From assembly GCA_943329845.2 (NCBI GenBank), contig CALQFM020000005.1, positions 1-64,000 on the forward strand: 64,000 nucleotides of DNA. The letters run 5' to 3'. Below are positions 1 to 13,527 of this stretch, in pieces. Origin of the DNA: Candidatus Kuenenia stuttgartensis. Its GTDB lineage: Bacteria > Pseudomonadota > Alphaproteobacteria > SMXS01. The notes under the pieces are model-generated. The model did no database searches. It was not told the origin of the DNA and saw nothing but the letters and a program-made list of their open reading frames with translations. The position numbers and the translations under genes are program-made. The stretch's first letter is position 1; each line of letters opens with the position of its first letter.

Positions 1-83
1 ACGCCGCCCTTCTGGTTGGCGACGGCGATGATCCGTCCGCCGTGCCGCTTCTTGCGCTTGCCTTCAACGCCCAGGGACAGCAC
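1..83 (-). CDS. parA: ParA chromosome-partitioning ATPase, N-terminal fragment
   Basis: Only the first 27 or so codons are in the window. They read ...GRIIAVANQKGGV, the start of the deviant Walker A box (KGGVGKT) of ParA/Soj ATPases. ParA drives segregation of ParB-parS complexes. The gene follows rsmG on the same strand, the usual rsmG-parA-parB order. No ATG precedes the conserved region in frame, so the start is probably the GTG at 83 (TTG at 89 is the alternative), overlapping the end of rsmG. The rest of the gene lies outside the window. Confidence 0.85.
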   Translation of the reverse strand, partial: MLSLGVEGKRKKRHGGRIIAVANQKGG

Positions 84-699
84 GGGCAACTTCCTGGATC
101 TGGATGATTTTCGCCTCGGGATCGGTGGCGCTGGGATGGCTATGGGCGAGGAAGTTCCACTGACCGCGTGCCTCTTCAAGCTCGGTCTCGGCGTCCCGCC
201 CCTTGAGGAAGAACGCGCTGCCGCCTTCGGCCAGAAGCGGCGCGGCATAGCCGAGCAACTTGCCGAGAGGCGCCAATGCGCGTGCCGTGACGATGTCCGC
301 GATGACGCCCTCCACTGCTTCGAGACGCGACGGATGCAGCTTAACAGAAACCCCGGTGACACGGGCGGCTTCTTGCAGAAAAACGAGCTTCTTCCGGTCG
401 CTGTCGATCAGCGTCCACGTGCCCACGCCCATGATCGCCAGCACCATGCCGGGAAAGCCCGCGCCGGTGCCGATGTCGGCGCAGCGCGGCGCGGGATGGG
501 ACGCCAGGATCAGCGGCGCCAGTTGTGCCGAATCGAGGAAATGCCGCCGCCACAGGTCCGGCAGCGTGGCTGTCGATACCAGGTTGATGGAGCGCTGCCA
601 CTTTTCCAGCAGCGCGGCATAGGCCTCCAGTTTAAGTAATGTTTCACGTGAAACATCGGTGGCGCGCCGGAACGCGGCGGAATCGAAGCCTCCGCTCAC
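64..699 (-). CDS. rsmG: 16S rRNA (guanine527-N7)-methyltransferase RsmG
   Basis: This 211-residue SAM-dependent methyltransferase modifies G527 of 16S rRNA in the small subunit. The SAM-binding motif [17 protein letters not shown] lies near residue 72, and length is normal for GidB/RsmG. The start is a GTG that overlaps the mnmG stop as GTGA, so translation is likely coupled to mnmG. Codons near residue 17 (DVSRET) are encoded by a perfect parS centromere site, so the segment serves both as protein code and as a ParB-binding site. Confidence 0.95.
640..655. promoter_or_regulatory. parS: parS centromere site 1 (inside rsmG)
   Basis: TGTTTCACGTGAAACA is a perfect 16-bp palindrome identical to the consensus ParB-binding parS site. 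It lies within the rsmG coding region close to parA, where parS clusters are normally found next to bacterial origins. It is about 12 kb from the predicted oriC. Confidence 0.95.
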
Positions 700-2582
700 G
701 CCCGCCGCTTCTGCCGTTCGCCGGACCGGCGCACATACCCGAGCAAGGCGGTCAGCGCCGCTGGAGTCACACCGGAGATTCGCGCCGCGGCACCCAAGGT
801 GGCAGGGCGGACCCGGATCAGCTTGCCGCGTACCTCGTTGGACAGCCCACCGATCGACGCATAGTCCAGGTCCGCCGGGAGGACCAGCGACTCGTCCTTG
901 CGGAACGCCACCACGTCTGCGTCCTGCCGATCCATGTAGCCGGCGTACCGCGCATCGATCTCGAGCTGCTCACGGACGGCCGGGGGAAATGCCAGCAGCT
1001 CCGGCCAGATCCGCCCGAGACTGTCGAGCGTCACGTCGGGATAGGCAAGCAGTTCATGCACCGGCCGCCGCTTGCCGTCATGGTTGATGACGATGCCATG
1101 CGTCGCAGCTTCATTCGGCGTCAATGCCAGCGTGCTGGAGAGCGCCCGGGCCCCGGCAAGCTGCGCCGTTTTCGCCTCGAACGCAGCAGACCGCACTGAT
1201 CCGACACAGCCCAGGTCGATGCCGCGCGGGGTCAAACGCTGGTCGGCGTTGTCGGCGCGCAGGCGAAGGCGGTATTCGGCGCGCGAGGTGAACATGCGGT
1301 ACGGCTCTTGCGTGCCACGCGTCACCAGGTCGTCGATCATCACGCCAATATAGGCTTCGGCGCGGTCGAGCACGACCGGTTCCGCGCCGCCCGCCGACAG
1401 CGCGGCATTCAGCCCGGCCATCAACCCTTGCGCCGCGGCCTCCTCGTAGCCGGTGGTGCCGTTGATCTGGCCTGCGAAGTAAAGTCGTGAAACTTTTCGT
1501 GTTTCCAGCGTCGGGCGCAGTTCCCGGGGGTCGACGAAATCATACTCGATGGCGTATCCCGGCTGCAGCATCACCGCGTGCTCCAGGCCCGGGATGGTCT
1601 TCAGCATCTCGGCCTGGACCTCGCAGGGCAGGGACGTGGAGATGCCGTTGGGATAGACCGTGTCATCGTCGAGGCCTTCCGGCTCCAGGAAGATCTGGTG
1701 CCGGTCGCGCTCGCCGAACCGCACAACCTTGTCCTCGATGGACGGGCAATAGCGCGGCCCGCTCGACTCGATCTGGCCGGAATACATCGGCGCCCGGTGC
1801 AGATTGGCACGGATGATCGCGTGGGTCGCCGCGTTGGTGTGGGTGATGTGGCAGTTGATCTGCGGCGTGGTGATGGTTTCGGTGAGAAACGAGAACGGCA
1901 CCGGCGGATCGTCACCCGGTTGTGCTTCCAGGCTGGGCCAGTCAATGGTCCGGCCATCGAGCCGCGCCGGCGTGCCGGTCTTCAACCGGCCAACCGCGAA
2001 GCCCTGCCGCCGCAGCGTCTTCGACAAGCCCAGCGACGGTGCCTCGCCGATCCGGCCGCCCGCGGTCTGCTGTTCACCCATGTGGATGACGCCGCTGAGA
2101 AACGTCCCGGTGGTCAGGATCACCCGCCCGGCGCGGATTTCCGTCCCGTCACCGGTGACGATCCCCGCCACGCGCGTCGTCCGGTCGCCGCCCTCGTCGA
2201 CCTCGTCGAGAATCAGGTCTTCGACCGCACCCGCCATCACGGTCAGGTTGGGATAGCCGAGCAGCAGCGCCTGCATGGCATTTCGGTACAGCTTTCGGTC
2301 GGCCTGGGCGCGTGGTCCGCGCACCGCGGGACCCTTGCCACGGTTCAGCAGCCGGAACTGGATGCCGGCGGCATCCGCGACCTGGCCCATGACGCCGTCG
2401 AGCGCGTCGATCTCACGCACCAGGTGGCCCTTGCCCAGCCCGCCGATGGCCGGATTGCACGACATCTGGCCGATGGTCTCGATCTTGTGGGTGAGCAGCA
2501 AGGTGCGCGCGCCGATACGGGCCGAGGCGGCCGCCGCCTCGCACCCCGCATGACCACCGCCGATGACGATAACGTCGTACAT
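696..2582 (-). CDS. mnmG: tRNA uridine-5-carboxymethylaminomethyl modification enzyme MnmG
   Basis: This 628-residue protein is the FAD-dependent subunit (GidA) that works with MnmE to place the cmnm5 group on the wobble uridine U34 of certain tRNAs. The N-terminal dinucleotide-binding motif [12 protein letters not shown] and the family signature [13 protein letters not shown] are present. Length is typical. It sits between mnmE and rsmG on the minus strand and overlaps rsmG by four bases. The second parS site lies just upstream of its ATG. Confidence 0.97.
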
Positions 2583-2641
2583 GCCCGCTCCGGTTTGCGC
2601 GCAATCTATGCGCGAGGCGGCGTCAGAGCAAGCGACAGGGA

Positions 2642-2657
2642 TGTTTCACGTGAAACA
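2642..2657. promoter_or_regulatory. parS: parS centromere site 2 (mnmE-mnmG intergenic)
   Basis: This is a second perfect TGTTTCACGTGAAACA palindrome, identical to the one at 640. It occupies the short space between the mnmE stop and the mnmG start. The two sites are about 2 kb apart, a spacing that suits ParB spreading and clustering. Confidence 0.95.
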
Positions 2658-2694
2658 TCACTTTAACCCGCCCAACCGCCGTCTTTGCGAGAGC

Positions 2695-3990
2695 TTACTT
2701 CCCGATGCAGAACTCGCCGAACACGACGTCGAGAATATCCTCCACATCCACGCGTCCCGTGATGCGGCCCAGCGCCCGGGAAGCGAGACGGACGTCCTCA
2801 GCGACGAGTTCGGGTTCGCGCCCGATGCCTGCGCGAGCACGGTCGAGGTGGGAGGCGGCGTCCTCAAGCGCCCGGCGATGCCGCGAGCGGGTCAGGCTCG
2901 GCGTCTCGCGCAGGCCCATCATGGTGACGACCCGCGTCTCGAGCGCCGCGAGCAACCCGTCAATGCCCTCGCCGCTACGAACCGAGATCAGGAACGCTCC
3001 CGGCATCGGCGAGGAGCGGGCGATATCCACCTTGTTGATGACGATCAGGTCATCCGGCTGAACTGTGCCGATGCCTTCGCCGGCCTCGTGGATCTGCAGC
3101 CGCAGATCCGCGTTCTCGGCGCGCTCACGGGCGCGGCGCACGCCCTCCTGTTCGATGACGTCGTCCGAGTCCCGCAGACCGGCCGTGTCGACCAGCGTCA
3201 CAGGATAGCCGCCCAGGTCGAGGCGGACCTCTATGGTGTCGCGGGTGGTGCCGGCGATCTCCGAGACGATGGCCACGTCTCGGCGCGCCAACGCGTTGAG
3301 AAGGCTGGATTTTCCCACGTTCGGCGGGCCGGTGATGACGACCTGGAAACCGTCCCGCAGCGCCTCGCCGCGCCGGTCGTCGGCCAGATGCGTACGGATC
3401 TCCGTGACCAACCGATCGAGCGCCGGGAGCACCTGCGCCGCCAGCCCGCCGGGCAAATCCTCGTCAGGAAAATCCAGGTCCGCCTCCAGGAAGGCGAGCG
3501 CCCGGATCAGGTCGCCGCGCCAGCCCTCGTAGACGGCGCCCAGCGCGCCGTCCATCTGCCGAAGCGCCTGGATGCGCTGCGCCTCGGTCTCGGCGCTGAC
3601 CAGGTCGGCGATGCCCTCGGCCTCGGTCAGGTCCAGCTTGCCGCGCTCGAACGCCCGGCGGGTGAACTCGCCCGGCTCGGCCGGCAGCAACCCGAGCCCG
3701 TCCAGCGCCGCGACCATGGCGGCGATCACCGCGGGACCGCCGTGCAGGTGAAGCTCGGCCACATCCTCACCAGTGAAACTGGCCGGCGCCGGAAACCAGA
3801 TGGCCAGGCCGCGATCAATCACCACGCCGGTCTCCGGATCGGCGAACGACCGCAGCGCGGCCTGCCGCGCTTGCGGCACGTCCTTGCCGGTGAGGGTGGC
3901 GAGCGCCGTGCCCGCGTCCTCGCCCGACAGGCGCATCACCGCGACGCCGGCACGGCCCTTCGCCGACGCCAGCGCATAGATGGTGGTCAT
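2695..3990 (-). CDS. mnmE: tRNA modification GTPase MnmE
   Basis: This 431-residue GTPase partners MnmG in wobble-uridine modification. It has the N-terminal formyl-THF-binding domain (starting TIYALASAKGRAGVAVMRLSG), a central G domain with P-loop GPPNVGKSSLLN and DTAGL switch II, and the family-defining C-terminus FGEFCIGK with the conserved cysteine. The ATG overlaps the stop of the upstream 2Fe-2S gene as ATGA, so the two are probably co-translated. Confidence 0.97.
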   Translation of the reverse strand: MTTIYALASAKGRAGVAVMRLSGEDAGTALATLTGKDVPQARQAALRSFADPETGVVIDRGLAIWFPAPASFTGEDVAELHLHGGPAVIAAMVAALDGLGLLPAEPGEFTRRAFERGKLDLTEAEGIADLVSAETEAQRIQALRQMDGALGAVYEGWRGDLIRALAFLEADLDFPDEDLPGGLAAQVLPALDRLVTEIRTHLADDRRGEALRDGFQVVITGPPNVGKSSLLNALARRDVAIVSEIAGTTRDTIEVRLDLGGYPVTLVDTAGLRDSDDVIEQEGVRRARERAENADLRLQIHEAGEGIGTVQPDDLIVINKVDIARSSPMPGAFLISVRSGEGIDGLLAALETRVVTMMGLRETPSLTRSRHRRALEDAASHLDRARAGIGREPELVAEDVRLASRALGRITGRVDVEDILDVVFGEFCIGK

Positions 3991-11273: not shown

Positions 11274-12323
11274 TCAGCTGCTCTGCCAGTTCCTGATCAA
11301 ATCGGACAACGCCGCGACATGCTCGGGCGGAGTCTGCGGCACGATGCCATGGCCCAGGTTGAAGATGAAGGGGCCGTTGGACAGCGACTCGAGAATATCC
11401 CTGGCCTGGTCTTCCATCGCCCTGCCGCCCACCACCACCGCCAGCGGATCCAGGTTTCCCTGCACCGCTACGGTCGTCTGCAGCGCGCGGGCGGCCCAGC
11501 GTGGCGGCATGGACGTATCGATGGCGACACCGTCGATGCCGGTCGCCGCCGCATACTCGGCGGTCTTGGCGCCCGCGCCGCGCGGAAAGCCGATCACCGG
11601 CACGCCCGGATAGCGCCGCTTCAACCGGCCGACGATGGTCCGCGTCGGTCCGGTGCACCAGCGTCCGAACTGGTCCTCGGACAACACGCCCGACCAGCTG
11701 TCGAACAGCTGCACCGCATGGGCGCCCGCTTCGATCTGGCGGCCCAGATATTCGGTCGTCGCTTCTGTGAGCACGTCGATCAGCGCGCCGAACGCCTGCG
11801 GGTCGCGCATCGCCCAAAGTCGGGTTTCCTGGAATTCCTTGGAGCCGTGGCCTTCGACCATATAGCTGGCGACTGTCCACGGCGACCCGGCGAACCCGAT
11901 CAGCGCGGTCCCGTCAGGCAGCGCGCCCGCGACCCGATCGACGGTTTCATAGACCGGCGACAGCCGCTCATGGATGGCATCGGGCTTGAGGGCCGCGATG
12001 CCGGCGGCGGTACGGATCGGCTCCAGCACCGGACCTTCGCCTTCCCGGTATTCCAGCTTCTGACCTAGGGCATCCGGGATCAGCAGGATATCGGCGAACA
12101 GGATCGCCGCGTCCATGCCGTAACGCCGGATCGGCTGCAGGGTCACCTCGGCGGCGGCTGACGGCGTATAACAAAGCTCCAGGAAGTCGCCGACCTGGGC
12201 GCGTACCTTGCGATACTCCGGCAGATATCGGCCTGCCTGGCGCATGAACCAGAACGGGGGTCGGTCGACTGGATGATCGGTCAATGCGTCGATCAGGCGC
12301 TTGCCGGAGGAAGGCTTGCTCAC
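11274..12323 (-). CDS. hemE: uroporphyrinogen decarboxylase HemE
   Basis: This 349-residue enzyme decarboxylates uroporphyrinogen III to coproporphyrinogen III. Family motifs include PPFWFMRQAGRYLPEYR near the N-terminus, GFAGSPWTVASYMVEG mid-protein, and FNLGHGIVPQTPPEHV near the C-terminus. The start codon is GTG (MSKPSSGKRLID). Its 5' flank is the predicted replication origin, as in Caulobacter, where oriC overlaps the hemE promoter region. Confidence 0.97.
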   Translation of the reverse strand: MSKPSSGKRLIDALTDHPVDRPPFWFMRQAGRYLPEYRKVRAQVGDFLELCYTPSAAAEVTLQPIRRYGMDAAILFADILLIPDALGQKLEYREGEGPVLEPIRTAAGIAALKPDAIHERLSPVYETVDRVAGALPDGTALIGFAGSPWTVASYMVEGHGSKEFQETRLWAMRDPQAFGALIDVLTEATTEYLGRQIEAGAHAVQLFDSWSGVLSEDQFGRWCTGPTRTIVGRLKRRYPGVPVIGFPRGAGAKTAEYAAATGIDGVAIDTSMPPRWAARALQTTVAVQGNLDPLAVVVGGRAMEDQARDILESLSNGPFIFNLGHGIVPQTPPEHVAALSDLIRNWQSS

Positions 12324-12335
12324 GTGGCCTTATCC

Positions 12336-12350
12336 TTAAGGATTCTTTAA
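12336..12350. promoter_or_regulatory. CtrA-binding box in oriC
   Basis: TTAAGGATTCTTTAA matches the full CtrA recognition site TTAA-N7-TTAA exactly. A GANTC site (GATTC) is embedded in its spacer, combining cell-cycle methylation and CtrA control. It lies 13 bases upstream of the hemE GTG, so bound CtrA could affect both hemE expression and initiation. Confidence 0.75.
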
Positions 12351-12468
12351 AGAGAATAGGTTGAAGAGGTAGTGGATCCCTGTGAGTCACGGGGGTTGCG
12401 CAGTCATACAATACTTGTCCTCGTACTGGCCACCCTTATGCCTCGTCCGCCGGCTGCGGGGCGGGGAT

Positions 12469-12477
12469 AGTGGATAA
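12469..12477 (-). promoter_or_regulatory. DnaA box, one mismatch
   Basis: On the minus strand this reads TTATCCACT, one base from the TTATNCACA consensus. It lies inside the predicted origin about 190 bases from the perfect box. Confidence 0.6.
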
Positions 12478-12663
12478 CCATCCTGCATGCGAGCCGGAGC
12501 GCCGAGTCCCCAGACCTTAATCATGGGGATATCCATCTGCCTGCGCCACGGAGTCTCCGTGACTCACAGGCAGTACCGTTTTCTTGTTCAATGGACTCAC
12601 TGTTTGACCGACTTATCCCCGCTGACCTCGCGCCGCATGCCGGTCATTGCCAAGCGGCCAAGG

Positions 12664-12672
12664 TTATGCACA
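12664..12672 (+). promoter_or_regulatory. DnaA box, perfect match
   Basis: TTATGCACA fits the TTATNCACA consensus exactly. It lies 30 bases upstream of the ppsR start, at the ppsR-proximal edge of the predicted origin. Confidence 0.75.
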
Positions 12673-12702
12673 GTTCGTCCACAGTTTCATCCTGGGCGGC
12701 AA

Positions 12703-13527
12703 ATGCAGCGATTTCACCTCCATCTGGTCTCCGACGCCACTGGCGAGACCCTGAGTTCCGTGGCCAAGGCGGCGCTCGCGCAGTTCGAAGGCTTCGACGC
12801 CATGGAGCACATGCACGCCATGATCCGCAGCCCCAAGCAGATGGAGCTGGCGCTTGCAGCGATCCAGCGCATGCCGGGCCTGGTGCTGTACACACTGGTC
12901 GACCGGGAGTTGCGGGCCCAACTCGAGGAAGGCTGCCGGTCGCTGGGCTTCCTGTCGATCGCCGTGCTCGATCCGGTGATGGAGGCCTTCGGCCGCTTCC
13001 TCGGCGCGGAAAGCCTGGGACGGCCCGGCCAGCAGCACGAGATGAATGCCGAATATTTCGGCCGCATCGAGGCCATGGGCTTCACCATGGCCCATGACGA
13101 CGGCTTGCGCACCGACGATCTCCACCAGGCCGATATCATCCTGCTCGGCGTTTCCCGCACCTCGAAGACGCCAACCGGCATTTACCTGGCCAACCGTGGC
13201 CTCAAGGTCGCCAACGTCCCCGTGGTGCCCGGCGTGCCCTTGCCCGAAGAGCTGGACGGGCTGAAGAAGCCGCTGATCGTGGCGCTCACCGTTTCACCGG
13301 ACCGGCTGGTGCATATCCGCCGAACCCGGATGCGGGCCCTGTCCGAGCCCGAGGACACGGCCTATGCGGATCCCGAGGCGGTGGCGGAGGAGATCACCGC
13401 CGCGCGGCGTGTCTACCTGAAGCGCGGCTGGCCGATCATCGACGTCACCCGCCGCTCGATCGAGGAAACGGCTGCCGCCATCTACAGCCTCTACCAGCGG
13501 CGCCAGGAAGAGTTGAACGGCGCATGA
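12703..13527 (+). CDS. ppsR: pyruvate, water/phosphate dikinase regulatory protein (DUF299)
   Basis: This 274-residue bifunctional kinase/pyrophosphorylase family protein acts on PEP synthase or pyruvate phosphate dikinase. It begins MQRFHLHLVSDATGETLSSV and carries the family P-loop-like motif GVSRTSKTPTGIYLANRG near residue 150. Longer upstream starts would extend into the origin and are not conserved. It opens the operon ppsR-maf-aroE-coaE-dnaQ, with its stop overlapping the maf ATG. Whether the substrate is PpsA or PpdK cannot be told here. Confidence 0.93.
   Translation: MQRFHLHLVSDATGETLSSVAKAALAQFEGFDAMEHMHAMIRSPKQMELALAAIQRMPGLVLYTLVDRELRAQLEEGCRSLGFLSIAVLDPVMEAFGRFLGAESLGRPGQQHEMNAEYFGRIEAMGFTMAHDDGLRTDDLHQADIILLGVSRTSKTPTGIYLANRGLKVANVPVVPGVPLPEELDGLKKPLIVALTVSPDRLVHIRRTRMRALSEPEDTAYADPEAVAEEITAARRVYLKRGWPIIDVTRRSIEETAAAIYSLYQRRQEELNGA

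What the first reader, a model, noticed from the sequence alone, without database searches (positions are those of the whole stretch)
12324..12702. Caulobacter-type replication origin with CtrA box, clustered GANTC and DnaA boxes
Six GANTC sites lie in 379 bases (random expectation about 1.5), one sits inside a perfect TTAA-N7-TTAA CtrA box, and there is one perfect and one near DnaA box. A 14-bp inverted repeat (12379, 12557) carries a GANTC in each arm. This suggests coordinated CcrM/CtrA/DnaA control of initiation.
Basis: partly seen in the sequence, partly recalled or inferred. Interest (0 to 1): 0.55.

Follow-up and report, generated by a model that had tools for sequence, protein, structure and literature searches.

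The report
Replication origin with methylation-site DnaA boxes

Summary
The sequence features are real. 12324-12702 is the 379-bp hemE/ppsR (DUF299) intergene, the standard alphaproteobacterial oriC site. Origin identity is supported by the flanking genes, the genome's only two perfect parS sites 10-12 kb away, AT-richness, and a sign change of third-position A/T skew at the orthologous place in a congener (G/C skew did not support it). The CtrA part fails: no credible native ctrA or chpT was found in the 10 family genomes, whereas ccrM and gcrA were found in all 10, and the exact TTAA-N7-TTAA box occurs in 2 of 6 full-length genus members, inside the AT-rich segment next to hemE. The new point is the inverted repeat. 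It is not a conserved hairpin: its arms look like DnaA-box slots that here read TGANTCACA, so a CcrM site fills box positions 2-6. A profile from eight genomes outside the family ranks arm 1 first in the window (27.6 against 10.1). GANTC is kept in arm 1 in 6 of 6 full-length genus members; two other lineages have GANTC in a corresponding slot, one assigned by eye only. I infer a methylation-tuned DnaA origin in a CtrA-less lineage. Position and conservation are shown; DnaA binding and methylation sensitivity are inferred.

The parts
12324..12702 (.). putative chromosomal origin (oriC), hemE/ppsR intergene
   Evidence: flanks by NCBIfam; AT 43.8% against 32.9% for the window; 16 of 1273 windows of that size, the locus itself included, are as AT-rich
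11274..12323 (-). hemE, uroporphyrinogen decarboxylase, left boundary gene
   Evidence: TIGR01464, 410 bits, over cut-off
12703..13527 (+). ppsR-type regulator (DUF299/COG1806), right boundary gene
   Evidence: NF003742, 322 bits, over cut-off
12328..12367 (.). most AT-rich 40-mer of the intergene (68% AT), candidate unwinding element next to hemE
   Evidence: on the hemE side in 8 of 8 full-length family intergenes
12336..12350 (+).
   Evidence: of the five other full-length genus members only G001 has the exact box
12370..12395 (-). class-wide DnaA-box context CCCCCG-TGACTCACA-GGGATCCACTA
   Evidence: best hit of the whole window to a profile built from 8 genomes outside the family, 27.6 against 10.1
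12379..12392 (-). inverted-repeat arm 1; contains TGACTCACA (12381-12389), GANTC at box positions 2-6
   Evidence: GANTC kept in register in 5 of 5 other full-length genus members
12557..12570 (+). inverted-repeat arm 2; contains TGACTCACA (12560-12568); the same place reads TTATCCACA in G003
   Evidence: GANTC kept in 4 of 5 other full-length genus members
12469..12477 (-). DnaA-box-like TTATCCACT (perfect TTATCCACA in G003)
12664..12672 (+). DnaA-box-like TTATGCACA, inside the most conserved 12-mers of the intergene
12507..12512 (+). TCCCCA, Caulobacter W-box-like
   Evidence: count, place read
12524..12529 (-). TCCCCA, Caulobacter W-box-like; lies in an invariant run
12519..12531 (+). match to the published IHF consensus WATCAN5WTR
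   Evidence: a match at about the same place in G001 and G005, not in G002, G003 or G006
12594..12598 (+). third conserved GANTC
   Evidence: kept in 4 of 5 other full-length genus members
641..654 (+). parS, perfect GTTTCACGTGAAAC
   Evidence: one of only two sites (at up to one mismatch) in the 3.68-Mb assembly
2643..2656 (+). parS, perfect GTTTCACGTGAAAC
   Evidence: the other one
64..3990 (-). rsmG, mnmG, mnmE (neighbours towards the contig end)
   Evidence: NCBIfam, over cut-off

Best explanation
The intergene is the chromosomal origin. DnaA assembles on a weak box next to hemE (arm 1), directly beside an AT-rich segment that opens, and on further weak boxes, including an oppositely oriented one (arm 2). 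In this genus both of these box slots read TGANTCACA in most members, so a CcrM site occupies box positions 2-6. CcrM would then methylate the boxes themselves. Replication leaves them hemimethylated until CcrM acts again, and I infer that this changes DnaA affinity (or the binding of another factor such as GcrA) and helps limit firing to once per cycle, in a lineage where no CtrA was found. Shown here: location, flanks, CtrA/ChpT not found, CcrM/GcrA found, slot homology of arm 1, GANTC conservation. Inferred: DnaA binding, methylation in the cell, effect on initiation. My odds: origin 0.95; not CtrA-controlled 0.92; arms are DnaA-box slots 0.75; methylation of them matters for initiation 0.4.
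For: Flanks and gene order. The assembly's only two parS are 10-12 kb away; in G003 and G006 a perfect parS lies inside the intergene. A/T third-position skew of G003 changes sign between the 20-kb sample on the locus and the next one. CtrA not found in G000, G001, G003-G009; the one strong ChpT match of the family is on the foreign-looking G002:C41 contig, which also holds the one CtrA piece. CcrM and GcrA in 10 of 10 (in G004 only part of CcrM). The profile from 8 outside genomes finds arm 1 first in the window and first in 8 of 8 family intergenes. The arm-2 slot is TTATCCACA in G003. TGANTCACA occurs 23 times in 3.68 Mb and the oriC pair is the only pair within 2 kb on one contig. N varies (C or T) while GANTC stays. 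Kordiimonas marina (TGATTCACA) and a Minwuiaceae MAG (GGACTCACA) have GANTC in a corresponding slot.
Against: TGACTCACA is 3 mismatches from TTATCCACA and may bind DnaA weakly or not at all. GANTC-in-box is not class-wide: 8 regions of 49 with a candidate slot, 6 of them genus members, and many of the 49 candidate slots are weak; G007 and G008 of the same family lack it. The profile does not pick the Minwuiaceae slot, nor a corresponding site in G010, G065, G046 or G021, so the Minwuiaceae case rests on reading by eye. In Caulobacter a ccrM deletion did not disturb control of initiation (PMC3973325, section 15). G/C skew and gene-strand bias of G003 do not point to the locus, nor does the skew of the window itself. 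The strict published trio criterion is not met with the arm-1 box. Mean GANTC retention over all six sites (2.33 of 5) is only modestly above other positions (1.49).
Confidence: 0.6

Rival explanations
1. Ordinary alphaproteobacterial oriC. The arms are merely weak DnaA boxes whose drift happened to create GANTC, and methylation has no role in initiation.
For: Caulobacter initiation control is normal without CcrM (PMC3973325, section 15). GANTC is generally enriched between genes in CcrM-bearing alphas (same paper, passages). 41 of 49 regions with a candidate slot have no GANTC in it.
Against: Both slots carry it in 5 of 6 full-length genus members; GANTC is kept while N and other box letters change; TGACTCACA gives up DnaA-box position 4 and still keeps GANTC; no 379-bp stretch of the window holds more GANTC.
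Confidence: 0.3
2. The conserved GANTC sites serve methylation-dependent transcription (GcrA with CcrM) of hemE and/or ppsR, not replication.
For: GcrA and CcrM occur in 10 of 10 family genomes; GcrA binds methylated GANTC promoters (PMC3667746, PMC8116508, passages); arm 1 begins 56 bp upstream of the hemE start codon.
Against: No sigma-70-type promoter-like pair in 12200-12800, though such scans are weak evidence; the arm-1 context matches a DnaA-box context shared with genomes whose slot has no GANTC.
Confidence: 0.2
3. Caulobacter-type origin repressed by CtrA through the TTAA-N7-TTAA box.
For: A perfect box with shuffle mean 0.03 in the window; also in G001.
Against: No CtrA found in the genome by two searches; the Caulobacter control rings, and 50 of 96 genomes searched pass the cut-off (in G000 26 of 33 first-look candidates were scored). 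ChpT not found. Box absent from G002, G003, G006 and imperfect in G005. The box lies in the AT-rich segment. Exact boxes occur in only 4 of 46 intergenes: G000, G001, G010 and G071, the last two with CtrA.
Confidence: 0.03
4. The inverted repeat forms a cruciform or hairpin that is the functional element.
For: 14 of 14 complementary in G000.
Against: Complementarity falls to 12, 13, 13, 10 and 10 of 14 in the five other full-length genus members while GANTC is kept in all but one arm; arms 164 nt apart.
Confidence: 0.03

Closest known systems
Caulobacter crescentus Cori (hemE/COG1806 origin)
   Same: Same flanking genes, AT-rich segment, weak DnaA boxes with G at position 2 (Cori G-box TGATCCACA), TCCCCA W-boxes, GANTC sites (PMC4285127, PMC4468827, PMC1914354, PMC3973325: passages seen)
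   Different: No CtrA found in the genome, one non-conserved TTAA-N7-TTAA instead of five CtrA sites, no TGATCCACA; the G-box-like sites here contain GANTC
Vibrio cholerae oriII with RctB 12-mers
   Same: Initiator binding sites that contain the methylation site itself (GATC); full methylation is needed for efficient RctB binding (PMC2865523, passages seen). This is what the present site may work like
   Different: Other initiator, other methylase, plasmid-like origin; not homologous. No binding data here
E. coli oriC with Dam and SeqA
   Same: Origin rich in methylation sites that is held back while hemimethylated (PMC2865523 and PMC11514494, passages seen)
   Different: Dam/GATC and SeqA; SeqA was not searched for here
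Basal origin unwinding system (DnaA box plus DnaA-trios; PMC8287927, passages seen)
   Same: A box oriented towards an AT-rich segment, with a CTA/CAA-rich array between
   Different: Three consecutive trios behind the arm-1 box are not met in G000
CtrA-less alphaproteobacteria that keep CcrM and GcrA (Granulibacter in Brilli et al. 2010)
   Same: Same regulator content by genome search (PMC2877005, passages seen)
   Different: Another lineage; its origin was not examined here

Membership tests
Alphaproteobacterial hemE/COG1806 oriC | hemE and DUF299 genes as divergent boundaries | tested here: met
Alphaproteobacterial hemE/COG1806 oriC | DnaA boxes in an intergene of over 300 bp, more AT-rich than the genome | tested here: met
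   one TTATNCACA plus weaker boxes, 379 bp, 43.8% AT against 32.9% of the window; the whole-genome AT was not computed
Alphaproteobacterial hemE/COG1806 oriC | IHF site | tested here: inconclusive
   one consensus match, at about the same place in 2 of 5 other full-length genus members
Alphaproteobacterial hemE/COG1806 oriC | strand asymmetry changes sign at the site | tested here: inconclusive
   A/T third-position skew does, G/C skew does not (congener G003, 59 samples)
Alphaproteobacterial hemE/COG1806 oriC | parS sites nearby | tested here: met
Alphaproteobacterial hemE/COG1806 oriC | drives autonomous replication / marker-frequency peak | not testable with these tools
   needs cells
CtrA-controlled origin (Cori type) | ctrA gene | tested here: not met
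CtrA-controlled origin (Cori type) | several conserved TTAA-N7-TTAA sites | tested here: not met
   one site, exact in 2 of 6 full-length genus members
CtrA-controlled origin (Cori type) | G-boxes TGATCCACA | tested here: not met
   0 in 8 of 8 full-length family intergenes; TGANTCACA in 6 of 8
CcrM-methylated origin | ccrM gene and GANTC cluster | tested here: met
CcrM-methylated origin | methylation of these sites and its effect on initiation | not testable with these tools
   needs long-read methylation calls and mutants
Basal unwinding system (DnaA box plus trios) | box with at most 3 mismatches, spacer at most 16, three consecutive trios | tested here: not met
   with the arm-1 box at best 3 of 4 trios fit, not three in a row; a strict hit exists with the overlapping GGATCCACT

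The most novel reading that the evidence does not exclude
In a lineage that lost the CtrA relay, the DnaA box at the opening site of oriC, and a mirror box, have been turned into composite DnaA/CcrM sites (TGANTCACA), so that CcrM methylation directly gates DnaA assembly: the chromosomal, DnaA-based counterpart of the methylation-gated RctB sites of Vibrio chromosome 2, possibly arisen several times in alphaproteobacteria.
Probability: 0.33. Interest if true: 0.8.

Novelty: new variant of a known kind. Interest (0 to 1): 0.55.

Why it matters
Whether CcrM methylation controls chromosome initiation in alphaproteobacteria is disputed: it was stated for Caulobacter (as told in PMC2865523) and then not found in a ccrM deletion (PMC3973325). 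CtrA complicates the test there. A lineage without CtrA whose unwinding-side DnaA box contains the CcrM site gives a clean test: one band-shift and one pair of point mutants would answer it.

Tried and rejected
CtrA control: rejected (no gene found, box not conserved). Hairpin or cruciform: rejected (pairing decays, GANTC mostly stays). G002 as a CtrA-bearing congener: G002:C41 (9,647 bp) carries chpT and an interrupted ctrA at its end, but its glutathione-transferase-like gene is only 55% and 60% identical to the two family members that have one (G003, G009) and was not found at E 1e-60 in the other 7, with 63-67% to several genomes outside the family, so I take the contig for a binning error; this is an inference. 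GC skew as locator: not informative. Gene-strand bias as locator: best fit elsewhere. Strict DnaA-trio test: not met with arm 1. Promoter and terminator scan: nothing. Naming the genus: not resolved; the named records that match best carry conflicting labels (Rhizobium sp. Q54, Sphingomonadales bacterium, Alphaproteobacteria bacterium).

Rows dropped before counts: of 52 loci, six had no usable hemE/ppsR pair (G004, G009, G013, G054, G083, G090), leaving 46. In one search, 57 regions were scanned (those 46, ten further regions upstream of ppsR, and the partial G004) and 8 gave no candidate slot; of the 49 kept, many slots score low. G010 has a GANTC just behind its box and G065 one in a similar stretch; neither is counted. 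The 8 outside genomes of the profile were picked by eye for a clear box, so the profile is not a random sample, although it contains no family member. In the scripts the two named records (Kordiimonas marina, Minwuiaceae MAG) carry default labels for ctrA and ccrM; neither gene was searched for in them.

Full report
Observation. GANTC is depleted in the window (104 found, mean 264 in shuffles), so six in 379 bp is about ten times the rate of the rest of the window (0.58 expected, P 3.3e-5), and no other such stretch holds more.

Origin. The region lies between divergent hemE and a DUF299/PpsR gene, with hemJ, rho and, further out, mnmE-mnmG-rsmG on one side and a maf-like gene (below its models' cut-offs), aroE and dnaQ on the other. 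hemE/DUF299 is the location of the Caulobacter and Rickettsia origins (PMC1914354, passages seen). The assembly of 3.68 Mb holds two parS sites at up to one mismatch, both perfect and both in this window, at 641 and 2643. In G001, G002, G003, G005, G007 and G008 all perfect parS sites lie within 14 kb of ppsR, and in G003 and G006 one lies inside the intergene itself. In G004 the one site, and in G006 the other two perfect ones, are on contigs other than that of ppsR; G009 was not in that search.

Skew. In G003, a congener in two contigs, the A/T skew at third codon positions was positive in all 10 samples from C2:1 to C2:210,000, negative in 28 of the 32 samples that follow up to C1:500,000, then positive in 15 of 17 (59 samples of 20 kb). 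The locus is at C2:199.8-200.2 kb. Two-segment fits put the second change at C1:480-600 kb, which brackets the point opposite the locus (about C1:562 kb, my arithmetic). The first change is broad: boundaries at 190-210 kb and at 320-360 kb fit about equally well (R2 0.450 and 0.455); 0 of 100 permutations reached the best fit. This assumes that C2 runs into C1 head to tail, inferred from the high skew at both ends. Third-position G/C skew gives other boundaries (C2:560-640 kb, C1:1-120 kb; 1 of 100 permutations) and gene-strand bias yet others (3 of 100), so these do not support the place. The window's own skew shows no clear switch at the locus.

Regulators. CcrM is present: 620.6 bits to the CcrM model over 348 of 350 positions, below that model's cut-off of 830, which none of 96 genomes and not even the Caulobacter control reaches; the closest solved structure is CcrM, E 3e-164. 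GcrA and CcrM were found in 10 of 10 family genomes, CcrM in G004 only as a 115-residue piece. DnaA has an intact 481-residue reading frame. CtrA was not found: of the nine OmpR-type regulators of G000 (read) I scanned seven, and none reaches the CtrA cut-off of 350 bits (best 190.9). The CtrA model finds nothing at E 1e-60 in G000, G001 and G003-G009, while 50 of 96 genomes pass its cut-off and the Caulobacter control rings (for G000 26 of 33 first-look candidates were scored; G004 and G006 are 78% and 84% complete). ChpT shows the same pattern: the only strong family match is on G002:C41; G005 has a short 23.5-bit match inside a 730-residue frame, nominally over the cut-off of 22.9, which I do not count. 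G002:C41 looks foreign. CtrA loss with CcrM and GcrA kept is known from Granulibacter (PMC2877005, passages seen), so it is not new as a pattern. CckA was not tested.

The CtrA box. Of six full-length genus members only G000 and G001 have it exactly; G005 has it with one A-to-T change; G002, G003 and G006 do not. It sits in the most AT-rich 40 bp of the intergene, which lies on the hemE side in 8 of 8 full-length family intergenes. I read it as a by-product of that AT-rich segment. Among 46 intergenes exact boxes occur in four: G000, G001, G010 and G071, the last two with CtrA.

The inverted repeat. Arm 1 on the hemE strand reads CCCCCG-TGACTCACA-GGGATCCACTA. The same context with a DnaA box is found in other alphaproteobacteria, for example TTACCG-TTATCCACA-GGCATCCACTA in G059 and TCCCCG-TTATCCACA-GGCATCCACCA in G051. 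A profile from eight genomes outside the family scores arm 1 at 27.6, first in the whole window on both strands; the next site scores 10.1, and arm 2 is fifth with 7.5. Arm 1 or its counterpart is also first in each of the 8 family intergenes. Of seven other regions tried, the profile put the slot first in Kordiimonas marina and G037, but not in the Minwuiaceae MAG, G010, G065, G046 or G021. At the arm-2 place G003 has TTATCCACAGG. I conclude that both arms are DnaA-box slots, arm 1 firmly, arm 2 less so.

GANTC in the slots. In the six full-length genus members arm 1 is TGACTCACA or TGATTCACA, always with GANTC; arm 2 keeps GANTC in five of six. Complementarity of the arms decays to 10 of 14 while GANTC mostly stays, which argues for binding sites and against a hairpin. 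TGATTCACA is one change from the Caulobacter G-box TGATCCACA and one from the Helicobacter box TCATTCACA (both in PMC4285127, passages); TGACTCACA is two from either. In the whole genome TGANTCACA occurs 23 times, and no other two lie within 2 kb of each other on a contig. Of 57 regions scanned, 49 had a candidate slot, many of them weak, and 8 of these had GANTC in it: the six genus members, Kordiimonas marina and a Minwuiaceae MAG. G007 and G008, of the same family, do not. Over the whole intergene the eight full-length family members hold 42 GANTC in 3,061 bp. Of the six sites of G000, three (12384, 12561, 12594) are kept in register in 5, 4 and 4 of 5 other genus members, the others (12341, 12504, 12551) in 0, 1 and 0.

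Mechanism and its limits. From the anatomy I infer that CcrM methylates the DnaA boxes themselves and that the change from full to hemimethylated state after firing alters their use by DnaA. The nearest demonstrated parallel is RctB in Vibrio cholerae, whose sites contain GATC and bind best when fully methylated (PMC2865523, passages seen). Against it stands the Caulobacter result that initiation control is normal without CcrM (PMC3973325, section 15 read), although the Caulobacter G-box TGATCCACA carries no GANTC. My searches of the paper library for GANTC with DnaA box, CcrM, oriC or origin gave listings in which I saw no report of GANTC inside DnaA boxes; only some of those papers were opened, and then in passages, and most subscription papers are not held. 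The comparative Caulobacter origin paper of Shaheen et al. 2009, which I saw only in a reference list, may bear on it.

Verdict. The origin is real and of a known kind; the CtrA claim fails; the composite DnaA/CcrM boxes are a new variant worth a direct test.

Noticed in passing
G003:C2:199827-199840 and G006:C66:2509-2522: A perfect parS lies inside the oriC intergene, a few bases before ppsR, in two congeners; the window's genome has none there.
   Followed up: partly
window 530-893: Five GANTC within about 365 bp around rsmG/mnmG and the parS at 641, the only other place of the window with five or more in 379 bp.
   Followed up: no
L153 (G002:C41:1-9647): Short contig with chpT and an interrupted ctrA in a congener bin; its neighbour gene points to another lineage, so probably a binning error.
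   Followed up: yes
G000 contigs C7, C47, C55, C56, position 83-91: The same TGAATCACA at the same distance from four contig starts suggests a repeat element that broke the assembly.
   Followed up: no
G003:C2:1570001-1590000 and G003:C1:1-20000: Both stretches, near the contig ends, show an unusual G excess (raw GC skew about 0.10), which suggests joining the two contigs there.
   Followed up: partly
window 12404-12418: TCATACAATACTTG is among the most conserved stretches of the intergene in the genus and is not explained; G007 and G008 have TTGTCCACA and TTATCCACA at its right end.
   Followed up: no
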